DNA of 47,975 nucleotides, from NCBI RefSeq assembly GCF_009741975.1, contig NZ_WPCF01000005.1, positions 1-47,975 of the forward strand. The letters are read 5' to 3'. The notes beneath the pieces are model-generated. The model had not been told where the DNA came from. It saw only the letters and a list, made by a program, of their open reading frames with translations, and made no database searches. Shown here piece by piece: positions 39,002-47,975 of the stretch; position 1 is the first letter of the stretch, and every line of letters starts with the position of its first letter. The translations under genes and the position numbers were made by a program. Source of the DNA: Halobacterium sp. CBA1126 (lineage in GTDB: Archaea > Halobacteriota > Halobacteria > Halobacteriales > Halobacteriaceae).

Positions 39002-39938
39002 GACTGGCAGTGATGGGCGCCGGCGACGTCGGCCGCTCGGTCGCGGACCTCGCCGGCGAGTACGGCCACACGGTGACGGCGTTCGCGGACTCCACGGGCG
39101 CCGTCGTCGACCCGGACGGCGTCGACGTCGACGCCGCGCTCGACCACAAGGAACGCGTCGGCAGCGTCGGCGAGGACGACCCCGCGGACGCGCTCGCCGC
39201 GGAGTACGACGCGCTCGTGGAGGCGACGCCGACGACGCTCGGCGACGCCCACCCGGGCTTCGAGCACGTGCGGGCGGCCCTCGAGAACGACCGCCACGTC
39301 GTCCTCGCGAACAAGGGGCCGGTGGCGGAGCGCTACGACGACCTGCGCGCGCTGGAAGCCGACAGCGCGGGCGAGATCCGCTTCGAGGCGACGGTCGCGG
39401 GCGCATCCCCGCGCTGTCGACCATCGACGGCGTCGGCGCCGAGCGCGTGACCGCGGCCCGCGGCGTGCTCAACGGCACGGCGAACTTCATCCTCACGCGG
39501 ATGGCGACCGACGGCCTCGACTACGAGCACGTGCTCGCGGAGGCACAGGACCTCGGCGTCGCGGAAGCCGACCCGACGTTCGACGTGGAGGGGACCGACG
39601 CCGCGCTGAAGTGCGCGATTCTCGCGAACGTCATCCACGGCGGCGGCTACGCGCTCGAGGACGTCGACGTCGAGGGCATCACGGACGTCCCGCCGTCGGC
39701 GCTCGAACTCGCCGCCGAAGACGGCCGGACGGTCCGGCTCATCGGCGAAGTCACCGAGGACGGCGCCCGCGTCGGCCCGCGGCTCGTCCCCGAGAACCAC
39801 ACGCTGGCGGTCTCCGGGACGATGAACATCGTCCAGCTGGAGACCGAGCACGCCGGCCGCCTGAACCTCTCCGGGCGGGGGGCCGGCGGCCCCGAGACGG
39901 CGACCGCGGTGCTGGGCGACGTGAACCGGCTGGAGTAG
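38998..39938 (+). pseudogene. hom: Homoserine dehydrogenase, one-base frameshift
   Basis: About 313 residues if repaired. The N-terminal NAD(P)-binding fold starts Leu-Ala-Val-Met-Gly-Ala-Gly-Asp-Val-Gly and continues to Leu-Ala-Asn-Lys-Gly-Pro (about 103-108, the conserved Asn-Lys). The frame breaks at 39403-39405, where one base (probably g) is missing in gcgggcgcatcccc. Downstream the catalytic part reads normally: Gly-Val-Leu-Asn-Gly-Thr-Ala-Asn-Phe-Ile-Leu-Thr, then Glu-Ala-Asp-Pro-Thr-Phe-Asp-Val-Glu-Gly-Thr-Asp-Ala-Ala-Leu-Lys with the catalytic Asp/Lys pair. The enzyme reduces aspartate semialdehyde to homoserine for Thr and Met synthesis. Either the strain lacks this step or the base is a sequencing loss, which is likely given similar breaks elsewhere. 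Confidence 0.85.
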
Positions 39939-41785: not shown

Positions 41786-41857
41786 GGGCTCGTAGATCAG
41801 TGGTAGATCGCTTCCTTCGCAAGGAAGAGGCCCTGGGTTCAAATCCCAGCGAGTCCA
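41786..41857 (+). tRNA. tRNA-Ala (anticodon CGC)
   Basis: 72 bases. Acceptor gggctcg pairs with cgagtcc and contains the G3:U70 pair, the universal identity mark of tRNA-Ala; discriminator A. Anticodon stem cttcc/ggaag with loop ttcgcaa, anticodon CGC (codon GCG). T-arm ctgggttcaaatcccag. No intron. A tgaaata box about 30 bases upstream is a probable promoter. Confidence 0.95.
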
Positions 41858-42268
41858 TTCCTTCGCTCACTTCGTTCGCTACGTCCGCGTGAGCGGAGCG
41901 AACGCGGACTCGAAAGAACGAGTTCTTTCAACGCTCGCGAGAATCCCAGCGAGTCCACTTCTCTAACACTCGACCGCGGAGCGACTGCTGTGTCACTCCG
42001 CGTCAAGGCAGTGTAGTTGACGAGTCGGGATTTGAAGCCCTGGAAGTCGCAACCGCGAGCGTAGCGAGCGGTCCGTCTTCCTCTGGGTTCAAATCCCGGC
42101 GCGACTCCGTCGCGCCGACCCTCGCGAACGCGTAGCGGTCGCTCAGTCCCGGCGAGTCCCCCTCTCACAACGTCACCCGCGACCGACTGCTGTGTCGCTC
42201 GCCCGTCGACATCTCCAACACGCGACCACGAACCCACGAATCCCACCGCGAGAGAGCGACGGACGCAG
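41858..42268. other. Gene-free stretch with repeated tRNA 3' ends after tRNA-Ala
   Basis: The last 16 bases of the tRNA (aatcccagcgagtcca) recur exactly at 41942-41957, 100 bp on. A hairpin with a T-arm copy lies at 42027-42097, and a degenerate copy (cccggcgagtcc) near 42145-42156. A hairpin gtccgcgt/acgcggac (41883-41909) sits just after the tRNA. No gene is supported. The pattern fits successive integration events or a dispersed repeat. Confidence 0.55.
42027..42097. repeat. Hairpin element carrying a tRNA T-arm sequence (copy 2)
   Basis: The left arm gggatttgaagccctggaag (42027-42046) pairs with the right arm around cttcctctgggttcaaatccc (42077-42097). Same plan as 23558-23611: a T-loop sequence at the outer edge and a gaagtc/gtcttc part inside. 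Each copy lies beside a tRNA gene. Confidence 0.55.
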
Positions 42269-42790
42269 TCAGCCCGAGAGCGCGTGGAATCGTTCTCGGG
42301 CGCGCTCGGGGACGTCGCGGCCGACCGTGACAGTGGCGTCGCCGTCCTCGAACGTGAGCTGGACGAACGCGGGGAGTCCCGACTGGGGGTCGCCGGGGTA
42401 CGCGAGCACGGGGACGAGCGCGTCGCCGCTGCGGACCGCACTCGGGGCCGGCGCGTCGTCGCGGGCGAACAGCGAGCGGCCGGCCATCGCGTCCGCGAGC
42501 GACGCGCGCCACGCGGGGTCCCCGCAGAGCCGTTCGAGCTTCTCGACGTCCATGCCGGTCTTGGCGGCGCTGTCCTTGCACTCGACGAGCGCGAGCGCGC
42601 CGTCCCGGCAGTACACGAGGTCGTTGATGACGGCGTTGGCGTTCTTCGTGAGGCTCTGCGTGCCGCCGGGCTCTTTCACCTCGAGCCGCGGGACGTCCGT
42701 CCCCCGGGGCGGGTCGCTGGCGAGAATCGTCCAGTCCCGCGAGCGGAACAGCCGCTTCGTCCAGAGGTACACCTCCGCTTCGGACGTCAT
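42269..42790 (-). CDS. Predicted PD-(D/E)XK nuclease-like protein
   Basis: 173 acidic residues. The middle reads Ile-Asn-Asp-Leu-Val-Tyr-Cys then Leu-Ala-Leu-Val-Glu-Cys-Lys, that is Asp followed about 15 residues later by Glu-x-Lys, the core of PD-(D/E)XK nucleases. The N-terminus (Met-Thr-Ser-Glu-Ala-Glu-Val-Tyr-Leu) is helical. I do not recognise a named family. The gene begins at 42790, exactly where the TnpB element inserted. Before the insertion it would have followed the gene at 44382-45368 directly, probably with overlapping stop and start. It may thus belong to the same operon as the regulator and the methyltransferase locus. Confidence 0.6.
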   Translation of the reverse strand: MTSEAEVYLWTKRLFRSRDWTILASDPPRGTDVPRLEVKEPGGTQSLTKNANAVINDLVYCRDGALALVECKDSAAKTGMDVEKLERLCGDPAWRASLADAMAGRSLFARDDAPAPSAVRSGDALVPVLAYPGDPQSGLPAFVQLTFEDGDATVTVGRDVPERARERFHALSG

Positions 42791-42884
42791 CTTTGCGGTA
42801 GCGAGGAAACCCCGCCTCTTGCGGCGGAGAGGAATCGCGTGCGTTTAGCTGGGCATTCGCACGTGTTTCGCCCGGCTGTCTGTC

Positions 42885-43025
42885 CTACTCGGCCGTCTCG
42901 TCGGTGTTGAGTGCTTCGACCCCTTCGAGCATGAGGCCTTTCCATGTGTATCCTCGCTTGTCTTTGATTGCTTTCAGTCGCTCGTACTGTTCTTCGTCTA
43001 CTTCGAACCTGATCTCTACACCCAT
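42885..43025 (-). CDS. 46-residue ribbon-helix-helix-like protein, divergent from tnpB
   Basis: It starts Met-Gly-Val-Glu-Ile-Arg-Phe-Glu-Val-Asp-Glu-Glu-Gln-Tyr-Glu-Arg-Leu-Lys. A strand of alternating residues followed by a helix, then a second helix (Trp-Lys-Gly-Leu-Met-Leu-Glu-Gly-Val), recalls small ribbon-helix-helix DNA-binding proteins. It lies inside the element, starting 58 bp from the tnpB ATG on the other strand, so it could control tnpB. The fold is inferred from pattern only. Confidence 0.55.
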   Translation of the reverse strand: MGVEIRFEVDEEQYERLKAIKDKRGYTWKGLMLEGVEALNTDETAE

Positions 43026-43083
43026 GCATTAGTGTACTACCCATGTAATTTATGTGGGTTACGGTCGTGCCTTGTACTGTCGG

Positions 43084-44367
43084 ATGGCTGCCGAAACCAC
43101 CGCCACGAAAACGCTCGAAGCCACGCTCGCGCCACCAACGGCGCACAAAGAGCAACGGCTTCAGCGGACCGTGGCGACGTACCGCCGCGCTCTTGACGAC
43201 GCGTTCGAGAGTGGCGCGGATACGCAGACGGCGGTCAACGATGTCGTTACCGGCTACAATCTCACGTCCTACGCGAAGGACGCGCTCAAGAACTACGTCC
43301 CGCAACTCCGCCGGACGTACAACGCCTCGGAACTCGAAGACGACCACCCAGTCCGATTCACGAACCGAGGGTTCCGAATCGACCACTCCGAGGAACGCGA
43401 ACACGAGTTCTGCTGGCGCGTTCCCCAAGCCGGACGTGGCAACGCCTTCTGGATTCCGCTCCGTATCAATCCCGCTCAGCGGGAGTTGTGGGAGGACTTG
43501 TTCACCGACGACGCGACGGTAGGCGAGTTCCGTCTGCAAGAACACCGGAAGAACTGGGTTCTTCACGTTACTGTCGAGTACGATGTCGCGGAACCCGAGG
43601 AGCCGGACGACCCAACACCGATTGGATTCGATATCGGCGAATCCAAACTCCTGACGGGCTGTGCCTGTCGGGACGATACTCCCACCCAACCGATGATGTT
43701 TGACGGCGGACGTGCTCGTCACCTCCGCAAGGAGATGTTCACGACTCTCCGACGATTGCAAGAACGTGACGCTGACTGGCGCATTAACGAGCGATTCGAC
43801 CACTACCAGAACGCGCTCACGGATATTGTCGAGAAGGCGTCTCGACAGGCTGTCGAGTACGCTCGTTCCTTCGAGAGTCCGGTTATCGTCCTTGAAGACC
43901 TCTCTGAGATCCGCGAACATCTGGATTACGGCAAGTGGATGAACCGTCGTCTCCACAACTGGGCGTTCGCCCGTCTCACCGGGCGCATCGAGGACAAAGC
44001 CCTCGACGCCGGTATTCCCGTCCGATTTGTGAATCCATCGTATACGTCCCAAACGTGCCATGCGTGCGGGAATCTCGGACGGCGTTCGGCACAGGCCGAG
44101 TTCCGGTGTACGAACAGCGAGTGTTGGGTGACGGAGTATCAAGCGGATATCAACGCGGCGGCCAATATCGCTGGTCGCCTCAACCCGTGGGGTGAGAGCG
44201 TTCGTTGGAAACCGGAACGCGATGACACGCCACAGGATGGGAGCACTTGTGACAGTGCCTTGGGACACCGGGAGATGAGTCGGAACTCCCGACAGACGAC
44301 TCTCTCGGAGTATGGTTCCGGAACCCCCGACGATGAGGCTTCCCTTGTAGGAAGCCCCGCCCTTTAG
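43084..44367 (+). CDS. tnpB: TnpB, RNA-guided nuclease (intact RuvC site)
   Basis: 427 residues from the ATG at 43084; an earlier start at 43054 adds ten doubtful residues. RuvC residues: Asp183 in Gly-Phe-Asp-Ile-Gly-Glu-Ser, Glu271 in Leu-Glu-Asp-Leu, Asp355 in Gln-Ala-Asp-Ile-Asn-Ala-Ala. Zinc ribbon: Cys325, Cys328, Cys342, Cys347. The full triad makes this a likely active copy. Family members cut DNA next to a short motif using a guide RNA from the element's right end, which helps keep the element in the genome. The C-terminal tail (Thr-Thr-Leu-Ser-Glu-Tyr) and the right-end hairpin follow closely, so the guide RNA probably overlaps the 3' end of the gene. Confidence 0.9.
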   Translation: MAAETTATKTLEATLAPPTAHKEQRLQRTVATYRRALDDAFESGADTQTAVNDVVTGYNLTSYAKDALKNYVPQLRRTYNASELEDDHPVRFTNRGFRIDHSEEREHEFCWRVPQAGRGNAFWIPLRINPAQRELWEDLFTDDATVGEFRLQEHRKNWVLHVTVEYDVAEPEEPDDPTPIGFDIGESKLLTGCACRDDTPTQPMMFDGGRARHLRKEMFTTLRRLQERDADWRINERFDHYQNALTDIVEKASRQAVEYARSFESPVIVLEDLSEIREHLDYGKWMNRRLHNWAFARLTGRIEDKALDAGIPVRFVNPSYTSQTCHACGNLGRRSAQAEFRCTNSECWVTEYQADINAAANIAGRLNPWGESVRWKPERDDTPQDGSTCDSALGHREMSRNSRQTTLSEYGSGTPDDEASLVGSPAL

Positions 44368-44373
44368 GGCGGG
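44356..44373 (+). repeat. Right-end hairpin of the second TnpB element
   Basis: Perfect 7-bp stem cccgccc/gggcggg with loop ttta, followed by cgaggatgtca. Same structure as the relic at 18599-18630 on the other strand. The guide part of the RNA would start just beyond the element end. Confidence 0.6.
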
Positions 44374-44381
44374 CGAGGATG

Positions 44382-45368
44382 TCACCGGTACTGGTCGATG
44401 CGGCCCCGGTCGCCCTGGCGGAACTGCGCGAAGTCCGTGAGCACGTCGTCCGAGAGGACGAGCGCGTCCGCGCAGGCGTACCAGAGCGCGGTCTTGTTGC
44501 CGGGCTTGTAGGGGTGGTAGTCGAACCACGTCTCCCGGTCGAGTTCCGGCATGTCGAGGACGAGGTTGCGGTCGCGGTCGGCGACCGACGGCCCGGTGCG
44601 GCAGTAGAGGTAGTCGTAGGCGAACTGCGCGCCGACGTACGGGTCGGTGCGCCGCGTCCGGAAGCCGAACTCGCAGACGACCGTCTCGTCGCGGTCGGTG
44701 CGGAACGACCCGCTGCCGGGGAGGCCGTCGTGCTGGGCGACGACGTCCTCGGTGGGCCGGATGGCGACGGAGTTCGGCGGCCGCTCGTAGGGCGCGTACT
44801 CCGAGAGGATGCGCTCGGCGCCGCGCTCGGACTGCTCGCGAATCTCGTCGGCCGCGGGGACGTCGGGGTCGCAGCCGTTGCGGAGGAACTGCGTCACGAA
44901 CCGGCCGACGAGCTCGTCCTCGGAGCCGTCGTGGACGAGTTCGTAGTCGTCGTCGGTCGGCCACGGCGGAATCAGCATCGGCGTGTCGTTGACGGCTTCG
45001 ATGCGGCGCAGCGCCTGAATCGCGCGGTAGTTGAGGTTCGTCTTGGAGGCGTTCTCGCCGTGTTTCTTCGCGGCGTACGGCACGAAGAAGACGCCGGGGA
45101 CGCCGAGTTCGGCGGCCTTCACGAGCCGCGCGACCCGCTGGAGGGGGTTCTTCCCGGTGGGGACGTGGCCGGTCTTCTCGACGACGAGCACGGGGTCGTC
45201 GTCGGCGAGCAGGATGACGTCGGGGCGGTCGTAGCTCGCGATCTCGAGGACGGCCTCGGGGGCGTCGTCGTCCAGCCGGGAGATGGTCGCGCCCGCGAGG
45301 TCGTCGGCGAGCCGCTGGAACCAGTCGGCCTCCTGGATCGCGTCGTGGACGATGGTGTACTCGGTCAC
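44382..45368 (-). CDS. Unrecognised protein, possible nuclease, in the regulator operon
   Basis: 328 acidic residues from a GTG at 45368 that overlaps the stop of the winged-helix gene. The longer frame would run into that gene and is rejected. An early stretch reads Arg-Pro-Asp-Val-Ile-Leu-Leu-Ala then Val-Leu-Val-Val-Glu-Lys-Thr-Gly, with Thr-Gly-Lys-Asn-Pro-Leu-Gln-Arg a few residues later. A Pro-Asp followed by Glu-Lys is suggestive of restriction-type nucleases but not a textbook match. The C-terminal part has Glu-Phe-Gly-Phe-Arg-Thr-Arg-Arg and many aromatic residues. I do not recognise a family. Its place between a regulator, a second nuclease-like gene and a methyltransferase suggests DNA cleavage. 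The TnpB element inserted right after its stop. Confidence 0.6.
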   Translation of the reverse strand: MTEYTIVHDAIQEADWFQRLADDLAGATISRLDDDAPEAVLEIASYDRPDVILLADDDPVLVVEKTGHVPTGKNPLQRVARLVKAAELGVPGVFFVPYAAKKHGENASKTNLNYRAIQALRRIEAVNDTPMLIPPWPTDDDYELVHDGSEDELVGRFVTQFLRNGCDPDVPAADEIREQSERGAERILSEYAPYERPPNSVAIRPTEDVVAQHDGLPGSGSFRTDRDETVVCEFGFRTRRTDPYVGAQFAYDYLYCRTGPSVADRDRNLVLDMPELDRETWFDYHPYKPGNKTALWYACADALVLSDDVLTDFAQFRQGDRGRIDQYR

Positions 45369-45658
45369 CGCGAGGCCACCTCCGCGGAGACGGTCTCGCC
45401 GAGCGGCGTCAGCCGGTAGACGCGGCCGCGCTTGCGCTCGGGGTTCACGCACGTCACGACGTCCTCGTCGGCGAGTTCCGACAACACGTTGCTCACGTGG
45501 TTCAGTCGGATGTCCGTCCGTTCGGATAGCTGCTTCGGTGTCCGCGGGTTCTCCCGCAGGGCGGTGACGACGGCGACGCGGCGCTCGCTGGCGGAGACGT
45601 AGCCGTAGCGGTCTAGCTCCTCGTCGGACAGGCCGTCGCTGTCGGCCTCGTCGGGCAT
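45365..45658 (-). CDS. Winged-helix transcriptional regulator (ArsR-like)
   Basis: 97 residues from the Met at 45658. A winged helix at about residues 25-90: Glu-Arg-Arg-Val-Ala-Val-Val-Thr-Ala-Leu, then the recognition region Thr-Pro-Lys-Gln-Leu-Ser-Glu-Arg-Thr-Asp-Ile-Arg-Leu-Asn-His-Val-Ser, then a beta wing (Lys-Arg-Gly-Arg-Val-Tyr-Arg-Leu-Thr). Its stop overlaps the GTG start of the next gene, so they are one operon. The region just upstream holds repeated gtgtgtatcc motifs, probably its own binding sites, also covering the promoter of the divergent zinc-finger/methyltransferase genes. It may act like the controller protein of a restriction-modification system. Confidence 0.75.
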   Translation of the reverse strand: MPDEADSDGLSDEELDRYGYVSASERRVAVVTALRENPRTPKQLSERTDIRLNHVSNVLSELADEDVVTCVNPERKRGRVYRLTPLGETVSAEVASR

Positions 45659-45717
45659 CGTGTGTCCGAACGGATACACACGAGGTAGATAAGCGTTAGC
45701 GTCGGGATACACACGAG
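45658..45717. promoter_or_regulatory. Operator repeats between the regulator and the zinc-finger/methyltransferase genes
   Basis: ggatacacacgag occurs twice, at 45672-45684 and 45705-45717, 33 bp apart (about three helical turns). An inverted partner cgtgtgtccg (45658-45667) makes the first copy an imperfect palindrome overlapping the regulator's start codon. The sites flank a gcttatc TATA-like box on the minus strand. This is a typical layout for autorepression. Confidence 0.6.
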
Positions 45718-45774
45718 ACAGGGACGGAGTACCTCACAAAAGCTAATAACCGTGGCGCACAACGACGAGCCAAG

Positions 45775-45942
45775 ATGGCCGAGAAGCGCGACTCTGACGA
45801 GGTGGTGTCGAGCTATCCGTTCGCCAGCGACGACGCCGACGCCGGGGAGTCGTTCGTCTGCGAGGACTGCGAGCGGGAGTTCGACTCCCGGCGGGGGCTG
45901 AACATCCACCGCGGCCAGCAGCACGAGCAGGGTGGGGAGTGA
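45775..45942 (+). CDS. C2H2 zinc-finger microprotein
   Basis: 55 residues. A single finger: Phe-Val-Cys-Glu-Asp-Cys-Glu-Arg-Glu-Phe, then Leu-Asn-Ile-His-Arg-Gly-Gln-Gln-His, that is Cys-x2-Cys and His-x4-His. The N-terminal half is acidic and unstructured. A ctaataac TATA box centred 29 bases upstream fits a leaderless message. It ends five bases before the methyltransferase ATG, so they are co-transcribed. Possible DNA-binding or protein-binding accessory to the methyltransferase; not proven. Confidence 0.7.
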   Translation: MAEKRDSDEVVSSYPFASDDADAGESFVCEDCEREFDSRRGLNIHRGQQHEQGGE

Positions 45943-45946
45943 GCGG

Positions 45947-47010
45947 ATGGCGGTCCTGGACCTCTTCTGTGGCGCGGGCGGCCTCTCCGCGGGGTTCGAG
46001 CAGGCGGGCTACGACGTGGTCGGCGGCGTCGACCACGAGGGGGCGTTCGCGGCGACGTTCGAGCACAACCACGACGCGGCGTTCGTCGAGGCCGACCTGA
46101 GCGAGGTCACCGGCGGGGACGTGCTGGACCGGCTGGGCTACGACCCCGGGGACCTCGACGCGTCGTCGGCGGGCCGCCGTGTCAGGGGTTCAGTCTGGCG
46201 GGCGCGAAGACGACGCCGGGCGACGAGCGGAACTTCCTCGTGACGAACTTCGTGAAGTCCGTCTACGAGGTCGACCCGGACTGGTTCGTGATGGAGAACG
46301 TCCCCCGCATCACGTCGATGGAGGACGGGAAGGTCCTGGAGTACCTGCTCGACCAGTTCGCGGAGATCGGCTACGAGACGGAGTGGGCGGTGCTGAACGC
46401 GGCCGACTACGGGGTGCCACAGCGCCGGCGGCGGGCGTTCTTCGTCGGCCGGAAGAGCGGCGAGGGCTTCGAGTTCCCCGAGGGGTCGTTCCGGGAGTCC
46501 AAGGACCAGCAGACGCTGTTCGCGGACCGCGAGCCGCCGCGGACGGTCCGGGACGCGTTCGGCGACCTGCCGTCGCTGGAACCCGGCGAGGAGAAGACCG
46601 CGTACGCGGCCGACCCGGACGGCGAGTACCAGACGGCGATGCGGGCCGGCGGCGCGGGGCTGCGGAACCACCGCGCGCCGAACCACGGGGAGACGGTGAC
46701 CGAGCGCATCGAGCGGACGGCGCCCGGGGAGAAGATCCCCTACGACAGCTGGTCCCAGAAGCGCCGCCTCGAGTTCGGGGAGCCGGCGCCGACGCTGCTG
46801 GCGGGGCCGCGGCCGACCTACCACTTCGCGCACCCGACCGACGACCGGGGGCTGAGCGTCCGCGAGCGGGCGCGCCTCCAGTCGTTCCCCGACGACTACG
46901 AGTTCCGGGGCCCGATCGCGAAGCAGCGCCAGATGACGGGGAACGCGGTGCCGCCGCTGCTCGCGCGCGCTGTCGCCGACGCCATCGCCGAGCAGACCGT
47001 CCCCGCGTAG
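45947..47010 (+). pseudogene. DNA (cytosine-5) methyltransferase, one-base frameshift
   Basis: About 355 residues if repaired. C5-methyltransferase motifs in order: I Asp-Leu-Phe-Cys-Gly-Ala-Gly-Gly-Leu (residues 4-12), IV Gly-Gly-Pro-Pro-Cys-Gln-Gly-Phe (catalytic Cys, read in the second frame), VI Met-Glu-Asn-Val-Pro, VIII Gln-Arg-Arg-Arg-Arg, and X Gly-Asn-Ala-Val-Pro-Pro. The target-recognition region between VIII and X is short. The frame breaks at 46160-46162, where one base seems missing just before motif IV; adding one restores Val-Val-Gly-Gly-Pro-Pro. This may be a real loss or a sequencing error. It shares a transcript with the zinc-finger gene and is divergent from the regulator and nuclease-like genes. 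Confidence 0.85.
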
Positions 47011-47069: not shown

Positions 47070-47975
47070 ATGGGCCGCGTGCTGGTGGCGCTCGCGGTGC
47101 TCGCGCTCGTCGCCAGCGCCGGCTGTCTCGCCGCGGAGCCGACCGTCGTCGACACGGACACGGCCACGGACCGACCGTCGGCGCCGTTCACGGTGACCGA
47201 CCGGCCCGCCGACCGCGCAGTGAACCCGTGGGGGCCGGGGCCGATTACGGTCGCCGTCGAGGACCACGCGGGCACCAGCCGGGCGCTGCGGCCGGCGGTC
47301 CGGGAGACGGTGGCGTTCTGGGAGAACGAGACGTACGCGGACGACCGCTATCGGCCGTCGTTCGAGGTGGTCGCGAGCGACGAGTCAGCGGACGTCCGCG
47401 TGGAGGCCGTCGCGGCGGTCGACCGGTGTCCCGTCGACGAGGCCGACGTGGCGCTGGGGTGTGCGCCGGTCGTGCCGCCGAGAGCGACGGTGACCGAGGA
47501 CGTGACGATACGGGTGCGCGCCGGCCACACCCGGGCGACGATGCGCGCCGTCCTGAAACACGAGTTCGGCCACGTGCTCGGGTTCCGGCACGGCGAGGGG
47601 CCGGACGGCGTGATGACGCAGAGCCTCTCCTCGCGCGTGGACGGCGACGTCGCGGACGCGCGGCGCGGGCGTACTCGTGGGACTCGGACACGCTACAGGT
47701 CGCCGTCACGGCGGAGACGGGGACGACGGACGCGGCGCGGGAGCGCGTGCGGGAAGCCGTCGGCTACTACGAGCGCGGCGCGGACGGCACCGTCGCGAAC
47801 CCGCCGGCGTTCGAACTCGTCGACGACCCCGACGACGCGGCAGTCGTGGTGGCGCTCCGGGAGTCCGTCGACTGCGACGCGATCGGCGTGTCGTCGTCGT
47901 GTGCGCACTGGGACGGCCCGGACGTCGACGGCGACGGCACCCCCGAGTACTACACGGACGTCCGCGTCGTCGTCG
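47070..47975 (+). pseudogene. Metzincin-type metalloprotease lipoprotein, frameshifted and cut by the window end
   Basis: Begins with a lipoprotein signal (Leu/Val/Ala core, Ala-Gly-Cys at about 17-19). At residues 164-174 is His-Glu-Phe-Gly-His-Val-Leu-Gly-Phe-Arg-His, the HExxHxxGxxH zinc motif of metzincins, followed by a Val-Met-Thr-Gln turn. Near 47660 the sense jumps frame: after the break the acidic reading Trp-Asp-Ser-Asp-Thr-Leu-Gln-Val-Ala-Val continues, in the frame one base back, to the right edge. A single lost base in the G+C-rich stretch explains it. An extracellular membrane-attached protease is likely; substrate unknown. The C-terminus lies outside the window. Confidence 0.75.

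What the first reader, a model, noticed from the sequence alone, without database searches (positions are those of the whole stretch)
42269..47010. Candidate restriction/defence-like locus: methyltransferase, zinc finger, winged-helix regulator and two nuclease-like genes
Seen: a C2H2 microprotein and a C5-methyltransferase on one strand. Divergent from them are a winged-helix regulator, a 328-residue protein with Pro-Asp...Glu-Lys-like elements and a 173-residue protein with Asp...Glu-x-Lys. Regulator-type repeats lie between the two arms. Known: restriction-modification systems often pair a methyltransferase with a nuclease and a small controller. Inference: these genes form one modification/cleavage unit with an added zinc-finger partner. 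I know of no described system with this exact set.
Basis: partly seen in the sequence, partly recalled or inferred. Interest (0 to 1): 0.8.

Follow-up and report, generated by a model that had tools for sequence, protein, structure and literature searches.

The report
Mobile haloarchaeal restriction-modification cassette
This is a small, patchily inherited DNA-protection cassette of salt-loving archaea (one enzyme that marks DNA, two probable nuclease subunits that cut unmarked DNA, two small likely regulators) that in this genome has a transposon sitting between the two nuclease genes; it is a new variant of a familiar kind of defence, not a new kind.

Summary
An IS200/IS605-type TnpB element (42791-44384) lies between the two nuclease-like genes, and the C5-methyltransferase is split by a one-base deletion (46159/46160), probably a sequencing or assembly error. 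A same-genus genome (G011) has the locus intact: methyltransferase and zinc finger on one arm; winged helix, 328-aa R and 173-aa S on the other, overlapping by 4 bp, with no transposon. Among 392 genomes of the order, S homologues occur in exactly the 7 genomes holding close R homologues, always beside R and a C5-methyltransferase. A genome of another family has all five genes; four others have a methyltransferase-HhH-GPD fusion, R and S only. Cassettes abut tRNA genes in 6 of 7; the same-genus site is empty, decayed or filled by an Eco57I-like system. S keeps invariant E, D, ExK residues and weakly resembles Hjc; all R homologues weakly match a PADLOC 'Type II nicking endonuclease' model. Best reading: a Type II RM system whose nuclease is a large specificity/nicking subunit plus a small catalytic subunit, as in BtsI/BspD6I. 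Two-subunit function and regulation are inferred; the folds could not be modelled.

The parts
45947..47010 (+). C5-cytosine DNA methyltransferase, frameshifted by a 1-nt deletion at 46159/46160 just upstream of the PCQ motif; intact in G011
   Evidence: PF00145 7.9e-9 and 6.1e-43 on the two pieces, 2.1e-69 on the intact G011 copy; DNA alignment to G011
45775..45942 (+). 55-aa C2H2 zinc-finger microprotein, 4 bp upstream of the methyltransferase start; probably co-transcribed
   Evidence: Pfam zf-C2H2 1.5e-3, below cut-off; C-x2-C-x12-H-x4-H conserved in G011 and G254
45672..45717 (.). two copies of GGATACACACGAG (45672-45684, 45705-45717) upstream of the winged-helix gene; candidate operator
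   Evidence: core TACACACGA also in G011 and G254
45365..45658 (-). 97-aa winged-helix regulator (HVO_A0261_N family), first gene of the R-S arm; 4-bp overlap with R
   Evidence: PF25213 4.3e-12; start inferred from homologues
44382..45368 (-). R: 328-aa predicted restriction endonuclease large subunit; PD-x13-E-x-(T/S)...N-xx-QR motif
   Evidence: weak match to PADLOC PDLC03392 'Type II nicking endonuclease' in 7 of 7 homologues; alignment A3
42791..44384 (+). IS200/IS605-type (TnpB-only) element inserted exactly between the R stop and the S start
   Evidence: absent from G011, where R and S overlap by 4 bp; homologous element ends coincide in Haladaptatus and Halorubrum plasmids
43054..44367 (+). 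tnpB, RNA-guided endonuclease family, inside the element
   Evidence: NF040570 1.5e-37, PF07282 1.9e-16
42885..43025 (-). 46-aa ORF inside the element, faint ParD-like similarity, function unknown
   Evidence: Pfam ParD 0.071, not significant
42269..42790 (-). S: 173-aa predicted PD-(D/E)XK nuclease, proposed small catalytic subunit
   Evidence: invariant E4, D57, E70, K72 in 7 homologues; Hjc and AHJR-like hits in homologues, Hjc best weak PDB hits
41786..41857 (+). tRNA-Ala(CGC), integration-hotspot anchor; its 3' end is repeated at 41945-41956 and (1 mismatch) 42148-42159
   Evidence: empty or other-cargo sites in the genus

Best explanation
A mobile Type II restriction-modification cassette. 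The C5-methyltransferase marks a host sequence. R recognises the same sequence when unmodified and cuts one strand. S, a small PD-(D/E)XK protein whose gene overlaps R's, joins R and cuts the other strand, so the restriction enzyme is a large plus small heterodimer of the BtsI/BsrDI/BspD6I working type. The winged-helix protein, binding the TACACACGA repeats between the divergent arms, and perhaps the C2H2 microprotein on the methyltransferase arm, set the timing so that modification precedes cutting. In this genome a TnpB element has since separated S from R, so S is probably poorly expressed and R may act alone as a nickase or not at all; the methyltransferase frameshift is probably technical. 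Shown: gene content, conservation, co-occurrence, the insertion, motifs. Inferred: cleavage, heterodimer, regulation, target.
For: Intact five-gene set in G011 and in G254 of another family. R and S found in exactly the same 7 of 392 genomes, adjacent, always with a C5-methyltransferase; identity to the window's copy falls in near-parallel order for R and S. 4-bp overlaps wHTH-R-S. S: E...D...E-x-K invariant, Hjc/AHJR similarity. R: PDLC03392 match in all 7. More distant R relatives (G132, G282, G273) sit beside N4/N6 methyltransferases and are followed by another small protein; in two groups (G132/G282, G264) the small protein carries a PD...E motif by eye. Known precedent for a large nicking plus small catalytic subunit (PMC2909958; PMC4081073). 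tRNA-site insertion with empty, decayed and alternative-cargo alleles.
Against: No fold evidence: AlphaFold models pLDDT 33 and 38, no PDB sequence hit for R. The R match to PDLC03392 is weak (1.2e-4) and covers only the putative catalytic stretch. Known Type IIT enzymes generally have two methyltransferases (PMC4081073); here one is found in six of the seven loci. The R motif lacks the canonical Lys. hhalign gives little support for homology between S and the small partners of distant R relatives. No activity data.
Confidence: 0.58

Rival explanations
1. A Type II RM system in which R alone is the complete (homodimeric) restriction enzyme and S is an accessory repair nuclease, for example a Vsr-like enzyme acting at T:G mismatches left by deamination of 5mC, or an Hjc-like end-processing nuclease.
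For: S resembles Hjc/AHJR-type repair nucleases; C5-methyltransferases are often paired with Vsr (general knowledge; a methyltransferase paired with vsr is noted in PMC10609329); only one methyltransferase per locus in most cases, as expected for a palindromic target.
Against: Four cassettes already carry an HhH-GPD glycosylase domain on the methyltransferase, a known kind of deamination-repair partner, yet keep S. S is never found without R, is coded directly after R with an overlap in the intact five-gene cassettes, and distant R relatives with N4/N6 methyltransferases, where no 5mC deamination arises, also have a small downstream partner.
Confidence: 0.25
2. In this genome the locus is a decaying relic: the methyltransferase is truly frameshifted and S is uncoupled from R, so there is neither modification nor restriction (not exclusive of the main reading for intact copies elsewhere).
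For: 1-nt deletion in the methyltransferase and TnpB insertion; the relative G004 keeps only the last 46 codons of the methyltransferase at the same site.
Against: R stays open and constrained (dN/dS 0.163), while an unprotected host with an active R would be damaged; two more 1-nt deletions break neighbouring conserved genes (39406 in homoserine dehydrogenase, 47660 in a metalloprotease), which points to sequencing or assembly error.
Confidence: 0.2
3. Not a restriction system but an epigenetic/regulatory cassette in which the nuclease-like proteins serve another role such as mobilisation of the cassette.
For: tRNA-adjacent, mobile distribution; two DNA-binding regulators.
Against: R matches a restriction-type nuclease model and its distant relatives sit beside RM-type methyltransferases; one distant locus carries a separate integrase, so R/S are not needed as mobility genes.
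Confidence: 0.05

Closest known systems
Type IIT heterodimeric RM systems (BtsI, BsrDI, BspD6I)
   Same: Large subunit proposed to recognise the site and nick one strand, small nuclease-only subunit coded with it; a nicking-endonuclease model is the best hit of R
   Different: One C5-methyltransferase rather than two in six of seven loci; zinc-finger and winged-helix genes; haloarchaeal; direct sequence homology to these named enzymes not shown
Type II RM with controller (C) protein
   Same: Methyltransferase and nuclease arms diverge from a shared regulatory region with repeats and a small DNA-binding regulator
   Different: Regulator is a winged helix of the HVO_A0261_N family, plus a C2H2 microprotein on the methyltransferase arm
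C5-methyltransferase with Vsr or with a mismatch glycosylase (M.Mth/Mig.Mth, from general knowledge)
   Same: Four homologous cassettes carry an HhH-GPD domain fused to the methyltransferase
   Different: The window's version has no such domain; S keeps R company in both layouts
IS200/IS605-group TnpB-only elements (IS1341 type)
   Same: TnpB only, no TnpA, conserved element ends shared with haloarchaeal plasmids
   Different: Nothing unusual except its precise landing between R and S

Membership tests
Type II restriction-modification system | DNA methyltransferase genetically linked to a nuclease gene, across genomes | tested here: met
   7 of 7 loci with close R homologues
Type II restriction-modification system | nuclease cleaves unmodified target, methyltransferase protects the same target | not testable with these tools
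   needs protein work or methylome
C5-cytosine methyltransferase (PF00145) | motifs I, IV (PCQ), VI, VIII, IX, X and profile score over cut-off | tested here: met
   2.1e-69 on the G011 copy; in the window all motifs are present but split over two frames
PD-(D/E)XK nucleases, S (173 aa) | E...D...(D/E)xK conserved | tested here: met
   E4, D57, E70, K72 invariant in 7 homologues; Hjc 2.2e-4 in one homologue
PD-(D/E)XK nucleases, S and R | alpha-beta core fold | tested here: inconclusive
   single-sequence models pLDDT 38 and 33
PD-(D/E)XK nucleases, R (328 aa) | PD...(D/E)xK conserved | tested here: not met
   PD...E conserved but Lys at E+2 replaced by Thr/Ser; a variant at best
Type IIT heterodimeric endonuclease | two different subunits, each with one catalytic site, coded together | tested here: inconclusive
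   co-occurrence 7/7 and motifs support it; no fold or activity evidence
Type IIT heterodimeric endonuclease | generally two methyltransferases (or a fused pair), one per strand | tested here: not met
   single C5-methyltransferase in six of seven loci; a second one adjoins only in G103
C-protein-controlled RM | small xre-type HTH controller with C-box | tested here: not met
   regulator is a HVO_A0261_N-type winged helix
IS200/IS605 TnpB element | TnpB with RuvC-like core and TNB zinc finger, precise insertion | tested here: met

The most novel reading that the evidence does not exclude
A haloarchaeal C5 RM lineage with a two-subunit nuclease whose expression is timed jointly by a winged-helix repressor and a zinc-finger microprotein, a control scheme that I found no description of for RM systems, and which in this strain has been converted by a TnpB insertion from a double-strand cutter into a nickase-only system.
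Probability: 0.12. Interest if true: 0.6.

Novelty: new variant of a known kind. Interest (0 to 1): 0.42.

Why it matters
It gives a defined, testable archaeal RM family with an unrecognised small nuclease partner (no Pfam or NCBIfam model for R; only a weak PADLOC hit), a regulator pair unlike bacterial C proteins, and a natural series of intact, interrupted, decayed and empty alleles at one tRNA site. If S is a strand-specific partner, the family would be a source of haloarchaeal nicking enzymes.

Tried and rejected
Pfam, NCBIfam and PADLOC on all genes: R and S unnamed apart from the weak PADLOC hit. PDB sequence searches: nothing for R; only weak Hjc for S. Collection scans of genome contigs with P0002 and with A1, viral contigs, plasmids and phages: no R or S relatives. 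Homology of S to the small partners of distant R relatives by hhalign: not significant, kept only as a motif-level hint. A real methyltransferase frameshift was considered and judged less likely than error because of two further 1-nt deletions nearby.
Full report
What is there. The window is a whole contig (C177) of an incomplete assembly, G000 (87% complete, 209 contigs), of a haloarchaeon (inferred from the related genomes and plasmid hits). Between a tRNA-Ala(CGC) gene (41786-41857) and a metalloprotease-like gene (47070 onward) lie a 173-aa ORF (S, 42269-42790, -), a 328-aa ORF (R, 44382-45368, -), a winged-helix gene (-), a C2H2 microprotein gene (45775-45942, +) and a C5-methyltransferase (+).

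First, between R and S sits a TnpB element. The ORF 43054-44367 (+) is an RNA-guided endonuclease TnpB (NF040570 1.5e-37, Cas12f1-like TNB domain 1.9e-16). In G011, a genome of the same genus, R and S overlap by four bases (TACCG ATGACC) and the element is absent; in the window the same junction is split as TACCG + 1.59 kb + ATGACG. Element ends match TnpB elements on Haladaptatus and Halorubrum plasmids. Both reading frames survive the insertion, but translational coupling of S to R is lost.

Second, the methyltransferase is split by a 1-nt deletion at 46159/46160, a few codons before the GPPCQG motif; G011 has an intact 359-codon frame with otherwise collinear DNA. Two other 1-nt deletions in the compared stretches break neighbouring conserved genes: one at 39406 in homoserine dehydrogenase and one at 47660 in the metalloprotease. 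Three such breaks in about 11 kb make sequencing or assembly error the likelier cause; raw reads would settle it.

Is it one unit? In 392 genomes of the order, a profile of R found seven close homologues (G000, G011, G254, G104, G153, G103, G143) and five remote ones. A profile of S searched in an order sample of the same size found the same seven and nothing else; in 393 genomes of the phylum it found only loci that also hold R. All seven have a C5-methyltransferase adjacent. Two layouts exist. Layout A (G000, G011 and, in another family, G254): methyltransferase and zinc finger diverge from winged helix-R-S. Layout B (G104, G153, G103, G143): a methyltransferase of 611-754 aa (as ORFs) with a C-terminal HhH-GPD domain, followed by R and S, without winged helix or zinc finger. 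R and S identities to the window fall in nearly parallel order (90/62/43/45/31/33 and 79/53/38/30/26/25 %), as expected for joint inheritance. All genes are under purifying selection between G000 and G011 (dN/dS 0.16-0.32).

Mobility. A tRNA gene lies within about 430 bp of the cassette in six of seven loci, and copies of the tRNA-Ala 3' end lie between the tRNA and S (matches of this length and looseness are near chance for the window as a whole, so the argument rests on their position). In the genus the interval between EF-1alpha and the metalloprotease is 0.6-1.5 kb in seven genomes, 4.2 kb in G011, 5.7 kb in the window and 7.0 kb in G009. G009 carries there a 1408-aa Eco57I-type enzyme; G004 keeps only the last 46 codons of the cassette's methyltransferase. 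This is a hotspot for RM systems with gain and loss.

What R and S are. S has invariant E4, D57, E70 and K72 across seven homologues; three homologues hit Pfam Hjc and two hit AHJR-like (best 2.2e-4), and the four best PDB hits of the profile are Hjc resolvases at E 0.05-0.12, so a PD-(D/E)XK nuclease is likely. R has no named family; all seven homologues hit PADLOC PDLC03392 'Type II nicking endonuclease' (1.2e-4 for the window's own) over a segment PD-x13-E-x-(T/S)-...-N-xx-QR-xx-R in which the canonical lysine is missing. Remote R relatives sit beside N4/N6 methyltransferases (in G132 two of them) and are followed by another small protein; in G132/G282 and G264 that protein shows a PD...E-x-(D/K) pattern by eye, though hhalign does not prove homology to S. 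AlphaFold without alignment gave unusable models.

How it most likely works. Known Type IIT enzymes such as BtsI, BsrDI and BspD6I have a large subunit that recognises the site and nicks one strand and a small subunit without specificity that cuts the other (PMC2909958; PMC4081073). R plus S fits this pattern: large gene with a nicking-endonuclease match, small gene with a bare nuclease motif, overlapping genes, strict co-occurrence. Against it, such systems generally have two methyltransferases, while here one is found in six of seven loci. The main rival is that R acts alone and S is a repair nuclease; the presence of S in cassettes whose methyltransferase already carries a glycosylase domain argues against a deamination-repair role.

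Regulation. The 13-bp repeat GGATACACACGAG occurs twice just upstream of the winged-helix start (not reached in 1000 simulations) and the core TACACACGA is present in G011 and G254. The winged helix (HVO_A0261_N type) is the obvious candidate binder; a role for the C2H2 microprotein is inference only. A literature search for a zinc finger tied to haloarchaeal RM found nothing on point.

Verdict. It is a new variant of Type II RM, interrupted by a transposon in this genome. Interest is moderate.

Noticed in passing
42791-44384: TnpB-only IS200/IS605-type element with a 46-aa ORF on the opposite strand, landed exactly between the stop of R and the start of S; both frames survive.
   Followed up: yes
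39406, 46160, 47660: Three 1-nt deletions relative to G011 that break conserved genes (homoserine dehydrogenase, methyltransferase, metalloprotease), suggesting indel errors in this assembly.
   Followed up: partly
L010 4209-6044, L011 6439-8703, L025 8308-10167, L026 8456-10297: C5-methyltransferases fused to a C-terminal HhH-GPD (endonuclease III-like) domain, a possible built-in repair of deaminated 5mC, in four related RM cassettes.
   Followed up: partly
L045 1247-5473 (G009): The same tRNA-Ala site holds a 1408-aa Eco57I/TaqI_C-type RM enzyme in another species of the genus.
   Followed up: partly
L044 1441-1578 (G004): Only the last 46 codons of the cassette's methyltransferase remain at the same site, a decay product.
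   Followed up: yes
L027, L028 (G132, G282): Remote R relatives beside N4/N6 methyltransferases and a 144-aa PD...EVD protein; in G282 an integrase gene adjoins.
   Followed up: partly
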